DNA of 28,795 nucleotides, from positions 1 to 28,795 of the IMG/VR virus record IMGVR_UViG_3300047318_000234; one strand, given 5' to 3'. Below, piece after piece: positions 18,709 through 28,312 of this stretch (its first letter is position 1; each line of letters begins with the position of its first letter). A program made the position numbers and the translations under genes. The notes under the pieces are model-generated. The model searched no databases. It was not told the DNA's origin and saw only the letters and a program-made list of their open reading frames with translations. The stretch is from a virus.

Positions 18709-19010
18709 GCGCGGTGCTTTACAAGCTCGTCGATGTACGCTCGATAGACCGCAACGGCGACGCCCATGCGGTTTTCGAGCAGCGTCTCGACGTTCGCGCG
18801 GCTGAACTCGTCATCAAGATCCCAGCCAGCACACATGTCCATGAACATGTCCGCATCATTCCGGCCGTCGCGCTTCTCGATGAAGTCTTCGAGGGCCGTC
18901 TTGGTGCGGTGCTTGAAGGTGACCTTGACATCGACCGATTCGCCGCCGGCGACCGGGAAGGCCACGGCGGCGACAAAGGTCGGGTCAGCCTTGAGCGCGA
19001 ACTTCGCCAT
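18699..19010 (-). CDS. Tail assembly chaperone (gpG-like)
   Basis: The protein has 103 residues from ATG 19010, which overlaps the tail tube stop (TGATG). The pattern is FVAAVAFPVAGGESVDVKVTFKHRTKTALEDFIE in the first half, a beta pair with a Lys-rich strand. The helical part DADMFMDMCAGWDLDDEFSR...VAVAVYRAYIDELVKH follows. This is typical of the short chaperone encoded between tail tube and tape measure genes in siphoviruses. The last codons contain the slippery heptamer, so most ribosomes make this short product and a minority make the extended one. The chaperone is not expected in virions. Confidence 0.85.
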   Translation of the reverse strand: MAKFALKADPTFVAAVAFPVAGGESVDVKVTFKHRTKTALEDFIEKRDGRNDADMFMDMCAGWDLDDEFSRANVETLLENRMGVAVAVYRAYIDELVKHRAKN

Positions 19011-19786
19011 CAGTAGCGCACCGGCTCGGCTTGCAGCGACAGCGTCAGCTCAGACGCCATCAGCTCGTTCACCGTCAGGCTCGGGGTCTTGTTGACGCTG
19101 ATGAAGGCGTTGTAAGACAGGATCGAGGCCGAGGGCAGCGTGATCTTCACGGCGCGTTGCAGGCGGTCATCGTTGGCGACCACGGCCAGCAGGTAGCCCG
19201 GCTGCGTGATGTCGTCGGCGACCGAGAAGGTCAGGCCAGCGGCAGACTTGAATGTCGGGATGCGCTTCTGCGAGTCCGATTCAAGGAACTGGTATTCGAG
19301 GAACTGCTGTTCGCCGCCGTTCGAGGACGAGGACAGGATCTGCGAGAGCTGGGTGTAGCCGGTGACCTTGCGCACGGTGCCCGTGCCGCTGCCGGCCGGG
19401 TAGATGCTGGTCAGGGTGGTGTCGATGCCTTCGAGGTTGAACGTGTTGGCGGTGACGCCCGAGACGCGGACCACCTTGTTCGTCAGGCGCGACCAGCCCG
19501 AAGTGACTTCGACGAAATCGCCGTTTGCCAGGCCGTGAGCGGTCGAAGTGGCGACTGCCGGATTGGCATTGGTCAGGGCGGAGACGGTGAGCGCCGAGCC
19601 GTAGCCCGAGGCGATGGCGACGATTGCGCCGTTAGGCAGACTGACGGAACCCATCAGCGCCAGGCCCATCAGCACCTCGCGATGCGAATCGACGAAGCCG
19701 GCAACGTCAACGCCGGCAGCTTGTGCGCCGAGCGAGACAACGGCAAGGGCTGCGGTAAACAGCAGAGGGAGGAGCGACTTTTTCAT
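19010..19786 (-). CDS. Major tail tube protein, with an N-terminal signal-peptide-like extension
   Basis: The conserved part starts at about residue 45 (SVSLPNGAIVAIASGYGSAL). An FCCH-like segment follows (ALTNANPAVATSTAHGLANG, then FVEVTSGWSRLTNKV), and then the tail tube pattern GEQQFLEYQFLESDSQKRIP, LTFSVADD, PGYLLAVVANDDR and VNKTPSLTVNELMA...LSLQAEPVRY. The family normally begins near MxLPNGA. Here ATG 19786 (AAAGG upstream) adds MKKSLLPLLFTAALAVVSLG AQA, a textbook Sec signal peptide, in frame. An internal ATG at 19669 with GAGG 5 nt upstream gives the usual length (about 220 residues) and may be the true start. The gene follows two terminator hairpins. Confidence 0.8.
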   Translation of the reverse strand: MKKSLLPLLFTAALAVVSLGAQAAGVDVAGFVDSHREVLMGLALMGSVSLPNGAIVAIASGYGSALTVSALTNANPAVATSTAHGLANGDFVEVTSGWSRLTNKVVRVSGVTANTFNLEGIDTTLTSIYPAGSGTGTVRKVTGYTQLSQILSSSSNGGEQQFLEYQFLESDSQKRIPTFKSAAGLTFSVADDITQPGYLLAVVANDDRLQRAVKITLPSASILSYNAFISVNKTPSLTVNELMASELTLSLQAEPVRY

Positions 19787-19807
19787 GGCGAGGGGCCTTT
19801 CAGGACG

Positions 19808-19830
19808 AAAAAAAACCGCCTCTGGGGCGG
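19808..19830 (-). terminator. Intrinsic terminator before the tail tube gene (proximal)
   Basis: Minus strand: CCGCC-CCAGA-GGCGG followed by eight T (19830 down to 19808). It lies 21 bp upstream of the tail tube ATG at 19786. Between it and the next terminator lies a third short hairpin (GCCC/GGGC, 19842-19853) without a U-tract. Confidence 0.8.
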
Positions 19831-19864
19831 GGTTGGTGAATGCCCGAAAGGGCGGTGCGGAAAC

Positions 19865-19891
19865 AAAAAAGGCCCGCGGGTTAGGCGGGCC
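19865..19891 (-). terminator. Intrinsic terminator after the HNH-AP2 gene (distal)
   Basis: Minus strand: GGCCCGC-CTAACCC-GCGGGCC followed by six T (19891 down to 19865), a 7-bp all-GC stem. It starts 20 bp after the stop of the HNH gene at 19912 and probably ends the cassette transcript. Confidence 0.88.
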
Positions 19892-19911
19892 TTGGCTGGG
19901 GGACGAGCTGC

Positions 19912-20427
19912 TTAAATGGTGCAGCCCTCGTGATCTTTTCTCTTCTCTACTAGGTAGGCTTGGTGAGCCTCCTCTGCTGTGTCGTACAGGCCGATATGCC
20001 GGCCCTTCCCGTTCAACTGAATCCGAGCGCGCCATCTGTTCGTCGGCGCATGGAACACCACGCCGAGAAACCCGCTCTCGTTGTCCTTTCGAGGCTTGCG
20101 GATGTTTTCGCGGTTGACCTGATTTGTCACATCCCGCAGGTTGTCGATGCGGTTGTTGCCGCGGTCGCCGTCCTTGTGGTCGATGTCCTCTGCCGGCCAA
20201 ACGCCATGCACGTAGAACCATGCGAGCCGATGCGCCATGTAGCGAACCGAATCAACCGTCACCCGGTAGTAGCCGACCTGATTCCCGCCGCTGATGATGA
20301 AATCCGCTCGATCTCCAACTTGATGCCGCTGCGCCGTCCGCACCTTGCGAGTGAAGATGCCCGTCAGCGGGTCGTAGTGCAGCAACTCCTTCAGTCGGTC
20401 ATGCGCGATCAGTTCAACGGCCTTCAT
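19912..20427 (-). CDS. HNH endonuclease with C-terminal AP2 DNA-binding domain
   Basis: The protein has 171 residues from ATG 20427 (ATGA overlap with the zinc protein). The first 55 residues (HYDPLTGIFTRKVRT, NQVGYYRVTV) are the usual lead-in. The HNH core follows: AHRLAWFYVHGVWP (H66), DIDHKDGDRGNNRIDNLR (H84, N92, N96). Residues about 118-160 (SGFLGVVFHAPTNRWRARIQ, then GLYDTAEEAHQAY) are an AP2-like DNA-binding domain. Free-standing HNH-AP2 proteins are mobile homing-type endonucleases in phage genomes. It is placed between tail genes, which it does not resemble. Confidence 0.9.
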   Translation of the reverse strand: MKAVELIAHDRLKELLHYDPLTGIFTRKVRTAQRHQVGDRADFIISGGNQVGYYRVTVDSVRYMAHRLAWFYVHGVWPAEDIDHKDGDRGNNRIDNLRDVTNQVNRENIRKPRKDNESGFLGVVFHAPTNRWRARIQLNGKGRHIGLYDTAEEAHQAYLVEKRKDHEGCTI

Positions 20428-20717
20428 GCGGCCACCAGTTGAAAGCTGGCCGATCCGTAGCCGTTGCGGGCTTTCCATTCCGGGCTTGCCTTGGCCGCCT
20501 TACCCATGGAGATCACTGCTGCGGTGCTGATGCGGAGGTTCTTGCCTTGGTAGCGTTGACGCAGAACCTTCGAGGCGCAGATGCAGCCGACGTTGAACTC
20601 TTCGCCGAACTCGTTGCGAACCATCACGGCGCGGACCAGATTGGTCTTGCCGCAGCAGTCGCACACCGGGTAATCGCTGGTGCCTGCGACGGTGAATTGT
20701 GTTCCTTCGATTGCCAT
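20424..20717 (-). CDS. Small zinc-binding protein upstream of HNH-AP2
   Basis: The ATG at 20717 has GGAG 7 nt upstream; an extended frame to 20780 overlaps the promoter and is rejected. The protein has 97 residues. VCDCCGKTNLVRAVMVRNEF followed by FNVGCICASKVL gives four or five Cys in two pairs, a zinc-ribbon pattern. The rest is Lys-rich and probably helical (MGKAAKASPEWKARNGYG). It has its own promoter and is coupled to the endonuclease gene. It may assist DNA binding by the endonuclease; function unknown. Confidence 0.65.
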   Translation of the reverse strand: MAIEGTQFTVAGTSDYPVCDCCGKTNLVRAVMVRNEFGEEFNVGCICASKVLRQRYQGKNLRISTAAVISMGKAAKASPEWKARNGYGSASFQLVAA

Positions 20718-20751
20718 TTTGCTGCTCCGGTATTTGTGTTGCGATGGAGTT

Positions 20752-20780
20752 AATGTAGTACAACAACCATCACGACGCAA
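20752..20780 (-). promoter_or_regulatory. Leftward promoter of the zinc protein / HNH-AP2 pair
   Basis: Minus strand: TTGCGT (20780-20775), 17 bp, TACATT (20757-20752). The palindrome TGTAGTACAACA (20754-20765) overlaps the -10, offering a place for control. The -10 is the same hexamer as in the early promoter. Confidence 0.55.
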
Positions 20781-20813
20781 GTACTTTTTGTATCACAGCA
20801 AATACTTTACAAT
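20779..20813 (+). promoter_or_regulatory. Rightward promoter of the divergent regulator; probably leaderless mRNA
   Basis: TACAAT at 20808-20813 ends 6 nt before the ATG at 20820, so transcription should begin at the A of the start codon. No ribosome binding site is present. The -35 is weak (TTTTTG, 17-bp spacer). AGTACTTT (20780-20787) and AATACTTT (20801-20808) repeat 21 bp apart, and AAGTACTT at 20779-20786 is palindromic. A leaderless transcript and flanking repeats are typical of autoregulated phage repressors. Confidence 0.5.
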
Positions 20814-20819
20814 CCGCGC

Positions 20820-20981
20820 ATGGAACAACCCAAACGCCCACCCGGTCGGCCCCCTACTCCGCCCGATGAAAAACTAATCCTTCGATCTATCCGGCTCACA
20901 TCTGCGCAGTGGGCCAAGATCGACGCGGCCGGGATGCCCTGGCTGCGGCAACTCATCCAGCGCGCCAAGCCACCGGCCTAG
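20820..20981 (+). CDS. Small DNA-binding protein, RHH-like, on the strand opposite the late genes
   Basis: The protein has 53 residues from ATG 20820. An AT-hook-like basic start (KRPPGRPPTPP) is followed by KLILRSIRLTSAQWAKID and MPWLRQLIQRAK. The arrangement of a beta strand RSIRLT, a helix SAQWAKI, a turn and a helix WLRQLIQRAK resembles ribbon-helix-helix regulators found in betaproteobacterial phages. Its end overlaps the DUF3168 gene by 4 bp. Too short for certainty, but sequence, promoter and repeats agree. It probably regulates the divergent cassette. Confidence 0.6.
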   Translation: MEQPKRPPGRPPTPPDEKLILRSIRLTSAQWAKIDAAGMPWLRQLIQRAKPPA

Positions 20982-21352
20982 CGATCCGCCCAAATACTGA
21001 AGTCTTGACGGGCGCCAAACAGATTGGTCACCTCGTCGTCCGTTGCTACGAATGCGCCCTCGGGCCTCGCCTGCAGCGTCGCCGACGTCACAAGGGCGGC
21101 TTCGATTGCCAGGGCGATGGCGTTCGCATCGACTTGCGTTGTGCTCCACACGTTGATCTGCATACGCGCGTTCCGCTTGCTCGGAACGGCGTTGTCCACG
21201 AAGGTCGGGGCCTCGCCGCCGACCTGCTGGAACGTGATGTAAGGCGGCAGGACGCCAGCCGGCGCGACAGTCGGATAGACGCGCCGCGTGCCGTTGGCGT
21301 TCGTCGGGACCAGCGGCTTAAGCAGGTCGAACAAGGCGGATTCGAGGCTCAT
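20978..21352 (-). CDS. Tail completion/terminator protein, DUF3168
   Basis: The protein has 124 residues. SLESALFDLLKPLV at the start, VLPPYITFQQVGGE, RMQINVWSTTQVDANAIALA (the conserved IxVWS strand and following helix) and the ending GARQDFSIWAD fit DUF3168 (gp17-like tail completion). Such proteins cap the tail tube and join it to the head connector. It sits in the canonical place after the HK97-gp10-type gene, with an ATGA overlap. Confidence 0.87.
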   Translation of the reverse strand: MSLESALFDLLKPLVPTNANGTRRVYPTVAPAGVLPPYITFQQVGGEAPTFVDNAVPSKRNARMQINVWSTTQVDANAIALAIEAALVTSATLQARPEGAFVATDDEVTNLFGARQDFSIWADR

Positions 21353-23991: not shown

Positions 23992-24012
23992 TTTTGGCCT
24001 TTCTTTGGGCGT

Positions 24013-24035
24013 AAAAAAACCGCCTCAAGGGCGGT
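24013..24035 (-). terminator. Intrinsic terminator between prohead protease and capsid genes
   Basis: Minus strand: ACCGCC-CTTGA-GGCGGT followed by a run of six further T (24035 down to 24013). It lies 22 bp after the protease stop (24057) and 21 bp before the capsid start codon, leaving no space for a promoter before the capsid gene. Confidence 0.8.
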
Positions 24036-24056
24036 CGGTTGGTTGCGGGTTTTGCG

Positions 24057-24731: not shown

Positions 24732-25941
24732 CGATGCCCCCCTTCGGTTGTTCTTTGCCCAGCTTGTCCAGCGGGAGCAGATTGGATTGCGCGGTCAGGA
24801 CATCGGTCCCTTCGATCTTCGGCCAGCCCTCAAGCTGGCGGATCTCGGCGCGCGTGATGATCCCGTTCTGGGCGTATTTCGCGTAAAGCTCAGCCCGCTC
24901 GGAGGCGCTGCCGCGCAAGAGGGCGTCCATGCTGAATTCGGCATGCTGAGCAGCGCGCTGGCGGGCGTTCATCACCCGCTTCTTCACCGCTTGCTCGATG
25001 TTCACGACCATCGGGCGAATCGTGAGCTTGTAGAAGAAGCCCTCGACGATGTCGTGGTTGCCGTACTGGACGACGCCGGGATGGTTCACCAGCACTGCAG
25101 GCACGCCGAACCAGCGGCAAATCTGCTCGACACCGAAGCGGCGAGTCTCGAGAAGCTGCTGATCCTCGGGCGAGAGGCTCAACTGCTGGTACTTCATGTT
25201 CGCTTCGAGCACCGCCAGGCGCGACATGCTGCCAGAGGACAGCTCGCCGTAGTTCGCGCGGAGCCCTTCGCGCTGCGCCGGGGTCAGCGCCGAGTCAATC
25301 ATCAGGATCGCGGTCGGCTTGCCACCATTCCCGAAGACCTTCGACGCCGCGGCCTGCGCTTTCGCCTGCTCGTCGGTCGTCGAGCGCATGAACTCCAGCT
25401 TTGCCAGGCCGACCGTGCCGTTCCCGAGATTCTTCAGGTGCAGGACGCTGGACTCAGACAAAACGGCGATGTTGCCGTCGACGGTGTACTCGTAGGCCAT
25501 CGAGCCATCGTCCAGCACGAACGGGCGCACCTGATCGGCAGGCATCGGCCACATCGCGACCACTTCGCCAGCGATTCGTTCGAGCCGCGCATAGGCATTG
25601 CCGCGCAGGTCGTGATTCATCATCATCGCGCGCCAGAATTCAAACGGCGTCATGCGCGAATTCGGCGATTCATGCAGCAGCGAGTACAGACGAGAGTCGC
25701 GCGCCAGGGTCTTTTCGCCCTTCTTCGTCTCGTAGGCGAAGTAAGGCAGGCTGGCGATCGTGTTCGCGCGAAGCTCGATGCACGCCCAAACAGCGTCAAG
25801 CTGCAGCGCGCCATCCGGCCCGATGTTGGCGACGCCCTCGGTGAGCGTGGTTGCGGGCAGGCCGTACTGCTCGCCGCCGCTTTCGGACAAGGCTCCGCCC
25901 CATCCAAACCACCGGCTGACAGTTTGAAGGATTGTTGCCAT
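24700..25941 (-). CDS. Portal protein, HK97 type
   Basis: The protein has 413 residues from ATG 25941 (TGATG overlap with the large terminase stop). AVWACIELRANTIASLPYFA, YSLLHESPNSRMTPFEFWRA, NAYARLERIAGEVVAMWPMP, VLHLKNLG and EGLRANYGELSS and CRWFGVPAVLVNHPGVVQYG are the conserved order of Phage_portal proteins. The C-terminal helix carries ITRAEIRQLEGWPKIEG. The dodecameric ring is the DNA entry point of the capsid and the docking site for terminase and connector. Confidence 0.95.
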   Translation of the reverse strand: MATILQTVSRWFGWGGALSESGGEQYGLPATTLTEGVANIGPDGALQLDAVWACIELRANTIASLPYFAYETKKGEKTLARDSRLYSLLHESPNSRMTPFEFWRAMMMNHDLRGNAYARLERIAGEVVAMWPMPADQVRPFVLDDGSMAYEYTVDGNIAVLSESSVLHLKNLGNGTVGLAKLEFMRSTTDEQAKAQAAASKVFGNGGKPTAILMIDSALTPAQREGLRANYGELSSGSMSRLAVLEANMKYQQLSLSPEDQQLLETRRFGVEQICRWFGVPAVLVNHPGVVQYGNHDIVEGFFYKLTIRPMVVNIEQAVKKRVMNARQRAAQHAEFSMDALLRGSASERAELYAKYAQNGIITRAEIRQLEGWPKIEGTDVLTAQSNLLPLDKLGKEQPKGGIDASAQDSIAQ

Positions 25942-27473
25942 CAGTAGACGATTGGGTTGTTGATGATGTCGTCCAGCGGCATCGTTGTTTCAGCGATCGG
26001 CATCACGCCGCACGCCATCGCGAGAGCCACCATCCCGTCGATACGGCCCCGCGCGTTTTTCTTGTCGAATTTCCGTGCGCCTGAGTCGCCGATGACCTTG
26101 GCGTTCTTTGCGCACATCTCAAGGATCGGGTGCATCCCGTGCCTCAACTGCTTTCCGAGCAACTTCACTTCAAGCTCTCGAAGGGCCGGCGTCATCGACA
26201 GCGTTCCCTGTCCGTATGGCTCAAACTTCGCCAGTTCGTCTTCGGAGAAGTTCGCCTTCACCAGCCACGGCCGCAGATGCACGAACAGCGCGCGGTCGAA
26301 GGCAACCTTCTGCACGTCGCACCGATCGAACAGGCCGCGCAGGCTCTCCGCGACAAATTCGTACTCAATCGCGCGGCCTGGCGTGGTGTTCAGGAAGCCC
26401 TGACGCGCCCACAGGTCGTATGGAACCTTGTCCTTGCGCGCCTTTTCGGCCAATCCATGCTCCGGCAGCCAGAATTCCGAGTGAACGCCGCCGTCTTCAG
26501 TGACCAATTCGAGCGATGTGAGGTCGTGAACGCTCGACAAATCGAGCCCCGCCCAGACCTTTTTCCCCTCGATCGGGCCGCATTCCGCCCCGTTTTCCCG
26601 CCAAACAGAGGCCGCAACGAAGGGAGAAACCGCCTCGACGCGCTGATTCAGGATCAGATTCCGAAACTCCGGCTCTTCTGCCGGCATCTGCAGGGCCTTT
26701 TTGCACTGCTTGTCGACGTCATCCAGCGACCGGAACTTGCCGAGCGCGGGATTCGCCGCGGCCCATGCCTTCTTATCGTCAAGCCTGCAGTCTTCAGGCG
26801 CCGCGTACACATGGCACACGACGCGCGGGTCATTCGCCGCCTTCTGCCCGTCGATCCACGTCGAAAACAGGTCGGCATCGGTCGGCGCCTGCGTGCTGAT
26901 CGCGATGAGCAGCGGGTTGTCATAGGCGCCCTGCGCAGACGTGACCGCGGTCACGAACTTGTCGGTCGGCCCGACCACCTGGCCCACTTCATCCAAGATC
27001 GCCAGGATCGGCGAGAGGCCGTGAGCCGTCTTGCCCTCCGCAGCCAGCGCGCGGAACAGCACGTTCTTGCGCAGACCGACCAACCGCTTACCGCTGGGCT
27101 GAATCCGCACCAGCGGGGTAAGCACCTCGCTCAGTTCGATCATCTTCCGGGCCAGCTCGAAGATCACGGCGGCCTGTTCCTTCGACTGCGCGCCGCTCAC
27201 GATCTGCGAGTTCTGCACCGCCATCGGACCAACCAAATGAGCCAGCAAAATCGCGGCGATAAGTGCAGTCTTTCCGTTCTTTCTCGCGATGGAAAGGATG
27301 GCGGTATGCGTCCCGATCGGCGAATCGTAGATCGCGAGGATGAATTTCCGTTGAAACGGCTCCAGCCTCATCGGCTTTCCGATGAGGTTCCCCTCGGGAT
27401 TCAGGACATACGTCTCGATGAACTTGCAAACCTTCTCGCCGCGAGTCAGTTTCTGCGCCCGTTTGACCCCCAT
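25941..27473 (-). CDS. terL: Terminase large subunit (Terminase_1 type)
   Basis: The protein has 510 residues, full length for the family. The ATPase has a Walker A-like SIARKNGKTALIA (K68), with Walker B at ILAILDEVGQV (D161, E162). The C-terminal nuclease has VWAGLDLSSVHDLTSLEL near residue 310 with its metal-binding Asp, and the later GRIDGMVALAMACG with another Asp. It cuts and pumps phage DNA into proheads. The 5' end of the gene holds, on the other strand, the promoter for an HNH gene. No small-terminase gene adjoins directly; it lies 836 bp upstream, beyond that HNH gene. Confidence 0.95.
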   Translation of the reverse strand: MGVKRAQKLTRGEKVCKFIETYVLNPEGNLIGKPMRLEPFQRKFILAIYDSPIGTHTAILSIARKNGKTALIAAILLAHLVGPMAVQNSQIVSGAQSKEQAAVIFELARKMIELSEVLTPLVRIQPSGKRLVGLRKNVLFRALAAEGKTAHGLSPILAILDEVGQVVGPTDKFVTAVTSAQGAYDNPLLIAISTQAPTDADLFSTWIDGQKAANDPRVVCHVYAAPEDCRLDDKKAWAAANPALGKFRSLDDVDKQCKKALQMPAEEPEFRNLILNQRVEAVSPFVAASVWRENGAECGPIEGKKVWAGLDLSSVHDLTSLELVTEDGGVHSEFWLPEHGLAEKARKDKVPYDLWARQGFLNTTPGRAIEYEFVAESLRGLFDRCDVQKVAFDRALFVHLRPWLVKANFSEDELAKFEPYGQGTLSMTPALRELEVKLLGKQLRHGMHPILEMCAKNAKVIGDSGARKFDKKNARGRIDGMVALAMACGVMPIAETTMPLDDIINNPIVY

Positions 27474-27492: not shown

Positions 27493-27520
27493 CCTGATTT
27501 ACTTTGCGGTGGACAAACAG

Positions 27521-28312
27521 ATGATCAAACTCGACCTTGTTGGGCAAAAGTTCAACCGCCTTCTCTGCCTAAAAGAACTCGATGCCACAGTCACAGGACG
27601 CCGCCGCGGCCTCTTTCTCTGCGACTGCGGACGCCATCTAGAGGCCGTGCTTTCGGCCGTCAAATGCGGCAGCACGAAGTCATGCGGGTGTCTGAGGGTT
27701 GAAACCTCTAAAGCGAGCCGCAAGAGGGACCTCACAGGTCGGCGCTTCGGCAGACTTCTTGTGACCTCTCAGGCCGGAAACTCCGGCCCAAAGAACGAAG
27801 CCGACTGGCACTGCTTGTGCGACTGCGGCAACACGACGACCGGGAAAACGGGCCAACTCAACTACGGCCGAAAAGAGTCGTGCGGCTGCATCCGTGTTGA
27901 ACAGATGCGGGCACTCGGCCTAGCCAACCGACAAGACAACCCCTACTCAAGGTCCGCCGAATATCAAGCCGCCAAGAAGCGTCGTTACCGCGCCCGACCG
28001 GCCTACGCGATGGCTGAGCGCGTTTCTCGTCTCGTCGCCTGGGCGCTGGCATCAGTCGGCGCGATCAAGAAAAGCGCAACGTTCGACATGCTCGGCTACA
28101 CGCCGGCCGCTCTGAAATCCCATCTCGAAAAGCAATTCACCAAAGGCATGTCATGGGACAACCGCGCCGAATGGCAGGTCGACCACATCATCCCTATCAG
28201 CACCGCCAGATGCGAGGCGGACGTCATCACGCTAAACCAACTATCGAACCTCAGACCGATGTGGTCAAAGCAGAACACAAGCAAAGGCAGTCGTCGGCAC
28301 CACCTGCTCTAG
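27521..28312 (+). CDS. HNH endonuclease with two zinc-ribbon repeats, antisense between terS and terL
   Basis: I chose the ATG at 27521, which has GGTGGA 7 nt upstream; GTG 27509 would add four residues. The protein has 263 residues. It has two tandem modules of about 65 residues. The first is LVGQKFNRLLCLKELD ... FLCDCG ... STKSCGC and the second LTGRRFGRLLVTSQ ... CLCDCG ... KESCGC, each with four Cys for one zinc. A basic linker (YQAAKKRRYRARP) follows. The C-terminal HNH part has WQVDHIIPIS, then LNQLSNLRPMWSKQN. It is a likely free-standing homing endonuclease with an own promoter. Codon use appears phage-like. Its 3' end overlaps the small terminase gene by 4 bp. Confidence 0.85.
   Translation: MIKLDLVGQKFNRLLCLKELDATVTGRRRGLFLCDCGRHLEAVLSAVKCGSTKSCGCLRVETSKASRKRDLTGRRFGRLLVTSQAGNSGPKNEADWHCLCDCGNTTTGKTGQLNYGRKESCGCIRVEQMRALGLANRQDNPYSRSAEYQAAKKRRYRARPAYAMAERVSRLVAWALASVGAIKKSATFDMLGYTPAALKSHLEKQFTKGMSWDNRAEWQVDHIIPISTARCEADVITLNQLSNLRPMWSKQNTSKGSRRHHLL

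What the first reader, a model, noticed from the sequence alone, without database searches (positions are those of the whole stretch)
19800..20981. Cassette HNH-AP2 + zinc protein + divergent leaderless regulator inserted between tail completion and tail tube genes
Between two genes that are normally adjacent lies a self-contained unit. A leftward promoter drives a zinc protein and an HNH-AP2 endonuclease ended by a strong terminator, and a rightward gene encodes a 53-residue RHH-like protein. Its -10 TACAAT places the transcription start on the A of the ATG. Repeats GTAC/GTAC/ATAC at 20758, 20781 and 20802, about two helical turns apart, lie across both promoters. It looks like a mobile element with own repressor, expressed in the lysogen independently of late transcription.
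Basis: partly seen in the sequence, partly recalled or inferred. Interest (0 to 1): 0.6.

Follow-up and report, generated by a model that had tools for sequence, protein, structure and literature searches.

The report
Regulated nuclease cassette in phage tail genes
A 1.1-kb insert between two phage tail genes carries a probable selfish DNA-cutting gene, a small zinc protein and a 53-residue switch protein; the switch protein and its two-way promoter recur in about 25 other phages and prophages, where they control different genes, often other DNA-cutting ones.

Summary
The insertion is real. Near-identical relatives (L004; L008/L009) have an empty site; window 19895-20978 (1,084 bp) replaces 19 nt of it. 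The cassette holds an HNH-AP2 endonuclease, a CxCC zinc protein and a divergent 53-aa protein. The strong terminator is resident, because empty alleles have it too.

The 53-aa gene is coding: changes at codon positions 1/2/3 are 419/206/920. About 25 relatives exist, in Burkholderiales-type phages and Burkholderia/Paraburkholderia genomes. All keep a -10 box 6-7 nt before the ATG, so the leaderless reading is strongly supported. Most also keep a 14-bp direct repeat about 35 bp apart, over the left promoter's -10 and the right promoter's -35.

What the left promoter drives is swapped between loci: HNH nucleases of several families, TnpB-like proteins, zinc proteins, other small genes. All four copies found among virion genes carry an HNH nuclease.

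Best reading: a portable autorepressed two-way control module for selfish nucleases or accessory genes, silent in the lysogen and released in a naive cell. Binding, cutting and timing are inferred. The logic resembles CvkR/Arc control of CAST. I found none described for phage homing nucleases.

The parts
19895..20978 (.). cassette absent from relatives (1,084 bp)
   Evidence: blastn: window 21446-20979 and 19894-19784 match L004 contiguously except for 19 nt; same for L008
20820..20981 (+). 53-aa regulator (GRP/AT-hook-like N-terminus + RHH-like core); its stop overlaps the stop of the tail-terminator gene (CTAG)
   Evidence: 62-74% identical aligned family members, purifying selection, AF2 model with helices 28-36 and 40-49 after an extended segment, pTM 0.35
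20785..20813 (+). rightward promoter: TTTTTG (20785-20790), 17 nt, TACAAT (20808-20813); predicted start on the A of ATG 20820 (leaderless)
   Evidence: -10-like hexamer 6-7 nt before ATG in 25 of 26 loci against 4% background; the one miss (L251) was a wrong start choice and reads TACAATCCGGCC-ATG
20752..20780 (-). leftward promoter: TTGCGT (20780-20775), 17 nt, TACATT (20757-20752)
   Evidence: TTGC-N17-YACAWT-type pair at the same place in about half the loci
20753..20766 (.). operator repeat O1 (ATGTAGTACAACAA), on the leftward -10
   Evidence: 34-36 bp direct repeat at the corresponding place in 16 of 22 loci, 24 bp in L240
20788..20801 (.). operator repeat O2 (TTGTATCACAGCAA), on the rightward -35/spacer
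   Evidence: alignment
20424..20717 (-). 97-aa CxCC zinc protein, GGAG Shine-Dalgarno at 20725-20728
   Evidence: homologues L083-L100, 58-87% identical, none beside tail genes
19912..20427 (-). HNH-AP2 endonuclease, start overlaps the zinc gene's stop (ATGA)
   Evidence: HNH_3 7e-16, AP2 4e-5 (below curated cut-off); phrog_99 2e-59; I-HmuI 1u3e 3e-4
19869..19893 (-). resident intrinsic-terminator-like hairpin that ends the cassette's transcript, not part of the insert
20978..21352 (-). flank: tail completion / tail terminator gene
   Evidence: PF11367 1e-10
19010..19786 (-). flank: tail tube gene, with 46-aa signal-peptide-like N-terminal extension (19649-19786)
   Evidence: PF08813 1e-53; extension absent in L004, present in L003

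Best explanation
The locus is a mobile HNH-AP2 homing-type cassette carrying a portable, autorepressed two-way control module. The 53-aa protein is made from a leaderless mRNA and probably binds two direct repeats 35 bp apart. One repeat lies on the leftward -10 and the other on the rightward -35, so binding shuts off both its own promoter and the zinc protein-HNH operon. In the lysogen the operon is then silent. After entry into a cell without the repressor, the operon is briefly expressed, independently of the late operon, before repressor accumulates. Cutting of cassette-free tail-gene DNA and repair from the cassette-bearing copy would spread it. Shown by sequence: insertion, empty site, coding and conservation of the regulator, conserved leaderless geometry, conserved repeat pair, swapped payloads. 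Inferred: binding, repression, cutting, timing.
For: Empty alleles with 84-92% DNA identity on both sides and 50 of 58 compact relatives. Regulator family of about 26 loci under purifying selection. -10 box 6-7 nt before ATG in all. 34-36 bp direct repeat in 16 of 22, 11 of 22 beyond all 200 shuffles. Payload swapped around a fixed control region: HNH in window, L223, L224, L240 and L238, TnpB-like in L233 and L251, CxCC-type proteins in L227, L235 and L236. All four copies among virion genes carry an HNH. HNH-AP2 alone at the same place in L032 and L033 points to that spot as a repeated landing place. In L238 a 28-aa stub of a virion gene stays on one side while a diverged full N-terminus stands on the other, as after one-sided conversion.
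Against: The window's own repeat pair is weak (47/200 shuffles). No fold or profile search confirms an RHH fold. More than half of the family members control non-nuclease genes in early regions, so the module is not specific to nucleases. HNH-AP2 occurs without the module at the same place. No target-site duplication or terminal repeat marks the ends. Many loci are related, so repeats and promoters are not independent observations, and several loci have no clear leftward promoter.
Confidence: 0.6

Rival explanations
1. Moron: the regulated unit is regulator plus zinc protein, an accessory gene useful to phage or lysogen, and the HNH gene is only a passenger that marks the recombination boundary.
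For: The regulator stands next to CxCC-type small proteins without a nuclease in L227, L235 and L236. Zinc homologues are early-region genes. Nuclease genes are known to lie at recombination boundaries (PMC10448857).
Against: Wherever the module sits among virion genes an HNH comes with it (4 of 4), three times with no homologue of the window's zinc protein.
Confidence: 0.25
2. The 53-aa protein is an activator or a late-operon regulator, not a repressor of the cassette.
For: One repeat (O2) lies upstream of the leftward -35, a position also used by activators.
Against: O1 overlaps the leftward -10 and O2 the rightward -35; small AT-hook/RHH-like proteins of this layout usually repress (general knowledge).
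Confidence: 0.1
3. Toxin-antitoxin-like unit: RHH antitoxin with zinc protein or HNH as toxin.
For: RHH-type antitoxins are short DNA-binding autorepressors; a nuclease is a possible toxin (general knowledge; PMC3874152).
Against: Genes are divergent, partners differ in every locus, and the protein has almost no C-terminal tail beyond the DNA-binding core.
Confidence: 0.05

Closest known systems
CvkR / Arc_1 / Arc_2 control of type V-K CRISPR-associated transposons (PMC9938897)
   Same: Short regulator gene upstream of and opposite to a mobile-element effector; 53-72 aa Arc/RHH regulators reported; leaderless repressor mRNA (CvkR); short shared intergenic region; conserved repressor motif
   Different: CvkR is MerR-type; payload is Cas12k/Tn7-like. 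Here payloads are phage HNH, TnpB-like or small genes, and the regulator has an RHH-like sequence of its own
I-TevI autorepression in phage T4 (PMC2988022)
   Same: Phage homing endonuclease whose promoter is repressed at a dedicated operator
   Different: In T4 the endonuclease itself is the repressor and the unit is intron-borne; here a separate divergent gene is the regulator
HNH-AP2 phage homing endonucleases (IPA-HNH of ICP1, PMC10448857; phrog_99)
   Same: Domain order HNH then AP2, free-standing, at a boundary between exchanged phage segments
   Different: Has an upstream zinc gene and its own control region
C-protein and Omega/PaaR-type autoregulators of restriction-modification and toxin-antitoxin units (PMC3874152)
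   Same: Small autoregulator that times a dangerous enzyme on entry into a new cell; Omega and PaaR are RHH repressors
   Different: No methyltransferase or antitoxin partner

Membership tests
free-standing homing endonuclease gene (HNH-AP2) | HNH catalytic motif with DNA-binding domain | tested here: met
   HNH_3 E 7e-16; AP2 E 4e-5 but below Pfam's cut-off; phrog_99; WRI1 AP2 and I-HmuI hits
free-standing homing endonuclease gene (HNH-AP2) | cassette-free alleles exist at the insertion site | tested here: met
   L004, L008, L009 and 50 of 58 relatives
free-standing homing endonuclease gene (HNH-AP2) | cleaves the empty allele near the insertion and spreads | not testable with these tools
   needs protein and phage crosses
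phage moron | own promoter | tested here: inconclusive
   conserved promoter-like pairs; no hit in the generic scan
phage moron | own terminator | tested here: not met
   terminator is present in empty alleles
ribbon-helix-helix repressors | RHH fold (strand-helix-helix dimer) | tested here: inconclusive
   pattern RSIRLT-helix-helix and AF2 helices 28-36, 40-49, pTM 0.35; no relevant Pfam, PDB or Foldseek match
leaderless divergent repressors of mobile elements (CvkR-like logic) | transcription starts at the ATG | tested here: met
   by conserved -10 to ATG distance only; 5' ends not mapped
leaderless divergent repressors of mobile elements (CvkR-like logic) | homology to CvkR (MerR type) | not tested
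   the 53-aa protein's RHH-like pattern and size differ from the 150-aa MerR-type CvkR; no direct comparison made
leaderless divergent repressors of mobile elements (CvkR-like logic) | binds operator and represses | not testable with these tools
   experiment needed
transposon | terminal inverted repeats / target duplication / transposase | tested here: not met
   no duplicated flank at the junctions and no transposase in the cassette; terminal inverted repeats judged from the junction sequence only

The most novel reading that the evidence does not exclude
A single portable control module (leaderless AT-hook/RHH-like repressor plus a two-operator two-way promoter) has been coupled again and again to different selfish nucleases in phages, giving them repressor-timed expression on entry into a naive cell: 'zygotically induced' homing.
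Probability: 0.4. Interest if true: 0.65.

Novelty: new variant of a known kind. Interest (0 to 1): 0.5.

Why it matters
How free-standing homing nucleases avoid harming the phage or lysogen that carries them is mostly known from T4, where the enzyme represses itself. A separate exchangeable repressor module would be a second solution, readily testable in a plasmid assay. It would also tie phage homing genes to the repressor control seen in CRISPR-associated transposons and restriction systems. The conserved control region also gives a search handle for further cargo genes.

Tried and rejected
Terminator as part of the cassette: rejected. 53-aa ORF as spurious: rejected by codon-position pattern. 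Named-phage search: no match for the regulator or the zinc protein in 50,697 phage records and no close DNA relative; five Burkholderia plasmids carry an unannotated relative of the regulator. RHH by structure: AF2 monomer plus Foldseek gave nothing. Zinc protein fold: poor model, pLDDT 58. Rfam: nothing in the locus. Nuclease enrichment by Fisher test (p 2e-4) is not used as proof, because the queries were taken from the loci themselves and the counts were partly entered by hand. Literature searches for a phage homing nuclease with a separate repressor found none.

Full report
WHAT IS THERE. The window is a 28,795-base IMG/VR virus record. Between the tail completion (tail terminator, PF11367) gene at 20978-21352 and the tail tube (PF08813) gene at 19010-19786, both leftward, stand a leftward zinc protein (20424-20717), a leftward HNH-AP2 endonuclease (19912-20427, joined by ATGA) and a rightward 53-codon ORF (20820-20981). 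The stop of the 53-codon ORF overlaps that of the tail-completion gene in CTAG.

INSERTION. L004 (tail completion 96%, tail tube 97% at protein level) and L008/L009 lack the block. DNA homology runs to 20979 on one side and resumes at 19894 on the other; 1,084 bp in the window stand where L004 has 19 nt. Of 58 relatives in which both flanking genes were recognised, 50 have at most 275 nt between them and none has the cassette there. The hairpin GGCCCGCCTAACCCGCGGGCC is in the empty alleles, so the terminator is resident. There is no target duplication. HNH-AP2 genes alone sit just before the tail tube gene in two other phages (L032, 78% identical; L033, 47%), without zinc protein or regulator.

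THE REGULATOR FAMILY. Scans of viral contigs, GTDB genomes and 399 genomes of the family of a Paraburkholderia found about 25 further loci of the 53-aa family. It has a GRP-containing (AT-hook-like) N-terminus and a core RSIRLTxxQWAKxDxxGxxWLRxLIxRAK. Differences at codon positions 1/2/3 are 419/206/920 over all pairs, as for a protein under purifying selection. RHH membership is plausible but unproven.

CONTROL REGION. A -10-like hexamer lies 6-7 nt before the ATG in 25 of 26 loci, against a 4% background. The exception had a wrong start; its sequence reads TACAATCCGGCC-ATG. There is no room for a Shine-Dalgarno, so the gene is very probably leaderless throughout the family. Two 14-bp direct repeats, 34-36 bp apart, occur at the same place in 16 of 22 loci (24 bp apart in L240), and in 11 of the 22 no shuffle reached the observed match. 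In the window they are 20753-20766 and 20788-20801. O1 covers the leftward -10, O2 the rightward -35 and spacer. The window's pair is not significant alone (47/200).

SWAPPED PAYLOAD. Beyond the fixed control region the leftward genes differ: HNH of other families in L223, L224 and L238; a cysteine-rich small protein plus HNH-AP2 in L240 (=L203); TnpB-like in L233 and L251; CxCC-type small proteins in L227, L235 and L236; other small genes elsewhere. Window, L223, L240 and L238 lie among virion genes and all carry an HNH; L107/L224, L227 and L233 lie beside recombination exonucleases. In L238 a 28-aa stub of a virion gene is left on one side of the cassette while a diverged intact N-terminus stands on the other.

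MECHANISM. Best fit: the protein represses its own promoter and the divergent operon; the lysogen is silent; entry into a naive cell gives a transient burst; the HNH cuts cassette-free DNA. Only anatomy and conservation are shown; binding, repression, cleavage and timing are inferred. The main rival is a moron (regulator plus zinc protein) with a passenger HNH.

RELATION TO KNOWN SYSTEMS. The logic matches CAST repressors CvkR/Arc (leaderless, divergent; PMC9938897), I-TevI autorepression (PMC2988022) and RHH or C-protein autoregulators (PMC3874152). HNH-AP2 homing genes at exchange boundaries are known (PMC10448857). I found no report of a separate exchangeable repressor for phage homing nucleases, so I call it a new variant of a known kind.

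Noticed in passing
window 19649-19786; L003, L014, L032, L193 1329-1466, L264 1426-2790: A 46-aa signal-peptide-like module (MKKS..LLF.AALAVVSLGAQAAGVDVAGFV..H...) is fused in frame to unrelated virion proteins: Phage_tail_3 tail tube, gpV-like tail tube (phrog_158) and an HK97-type major capsid protein (phrog_10). It is absent from near-identical L004. Rare, no significant PHROG match.
   Followed up: partly
window 19794-19837 and 23996-24043: Similar terminator-like hairpin plus T-run stands directly before the ribosome site of both the tail tube and the major capsid gene; the tail-tube one is conserved in relatives without the cassette.
   Followed up: partly
L233 3814-4908 and L251 322-1443: TnpB-like proteins under the same control module lack the RuvC-II glutamate: L233 has G where TnpB has E in the alignment, and L251 reads the same by eye. 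Possibly nuclease-dead RNA-guided regulators.
   Followed up: partly
Zn-protein loci L089-L100 and regulator loci L109, L111: The start of the leftward transcripts shares a word like CATCGACAACGCAAC among unrelated downstream genes; meaning unknown.
   Followed up: no
window 27509-28312 (+): A second HNH-type protein (weak HNH_4; phrog_374/endonuclease VII) lies upstream of the leftward gene at 25941-27473 (terminase-like by eye, not tested).
   Followed up: no
L063-L067, L069 between tail terminator and tail tube: A group of relatives has about 550 nt of other, unidentified sequence in the same gap.
   Followed up: no
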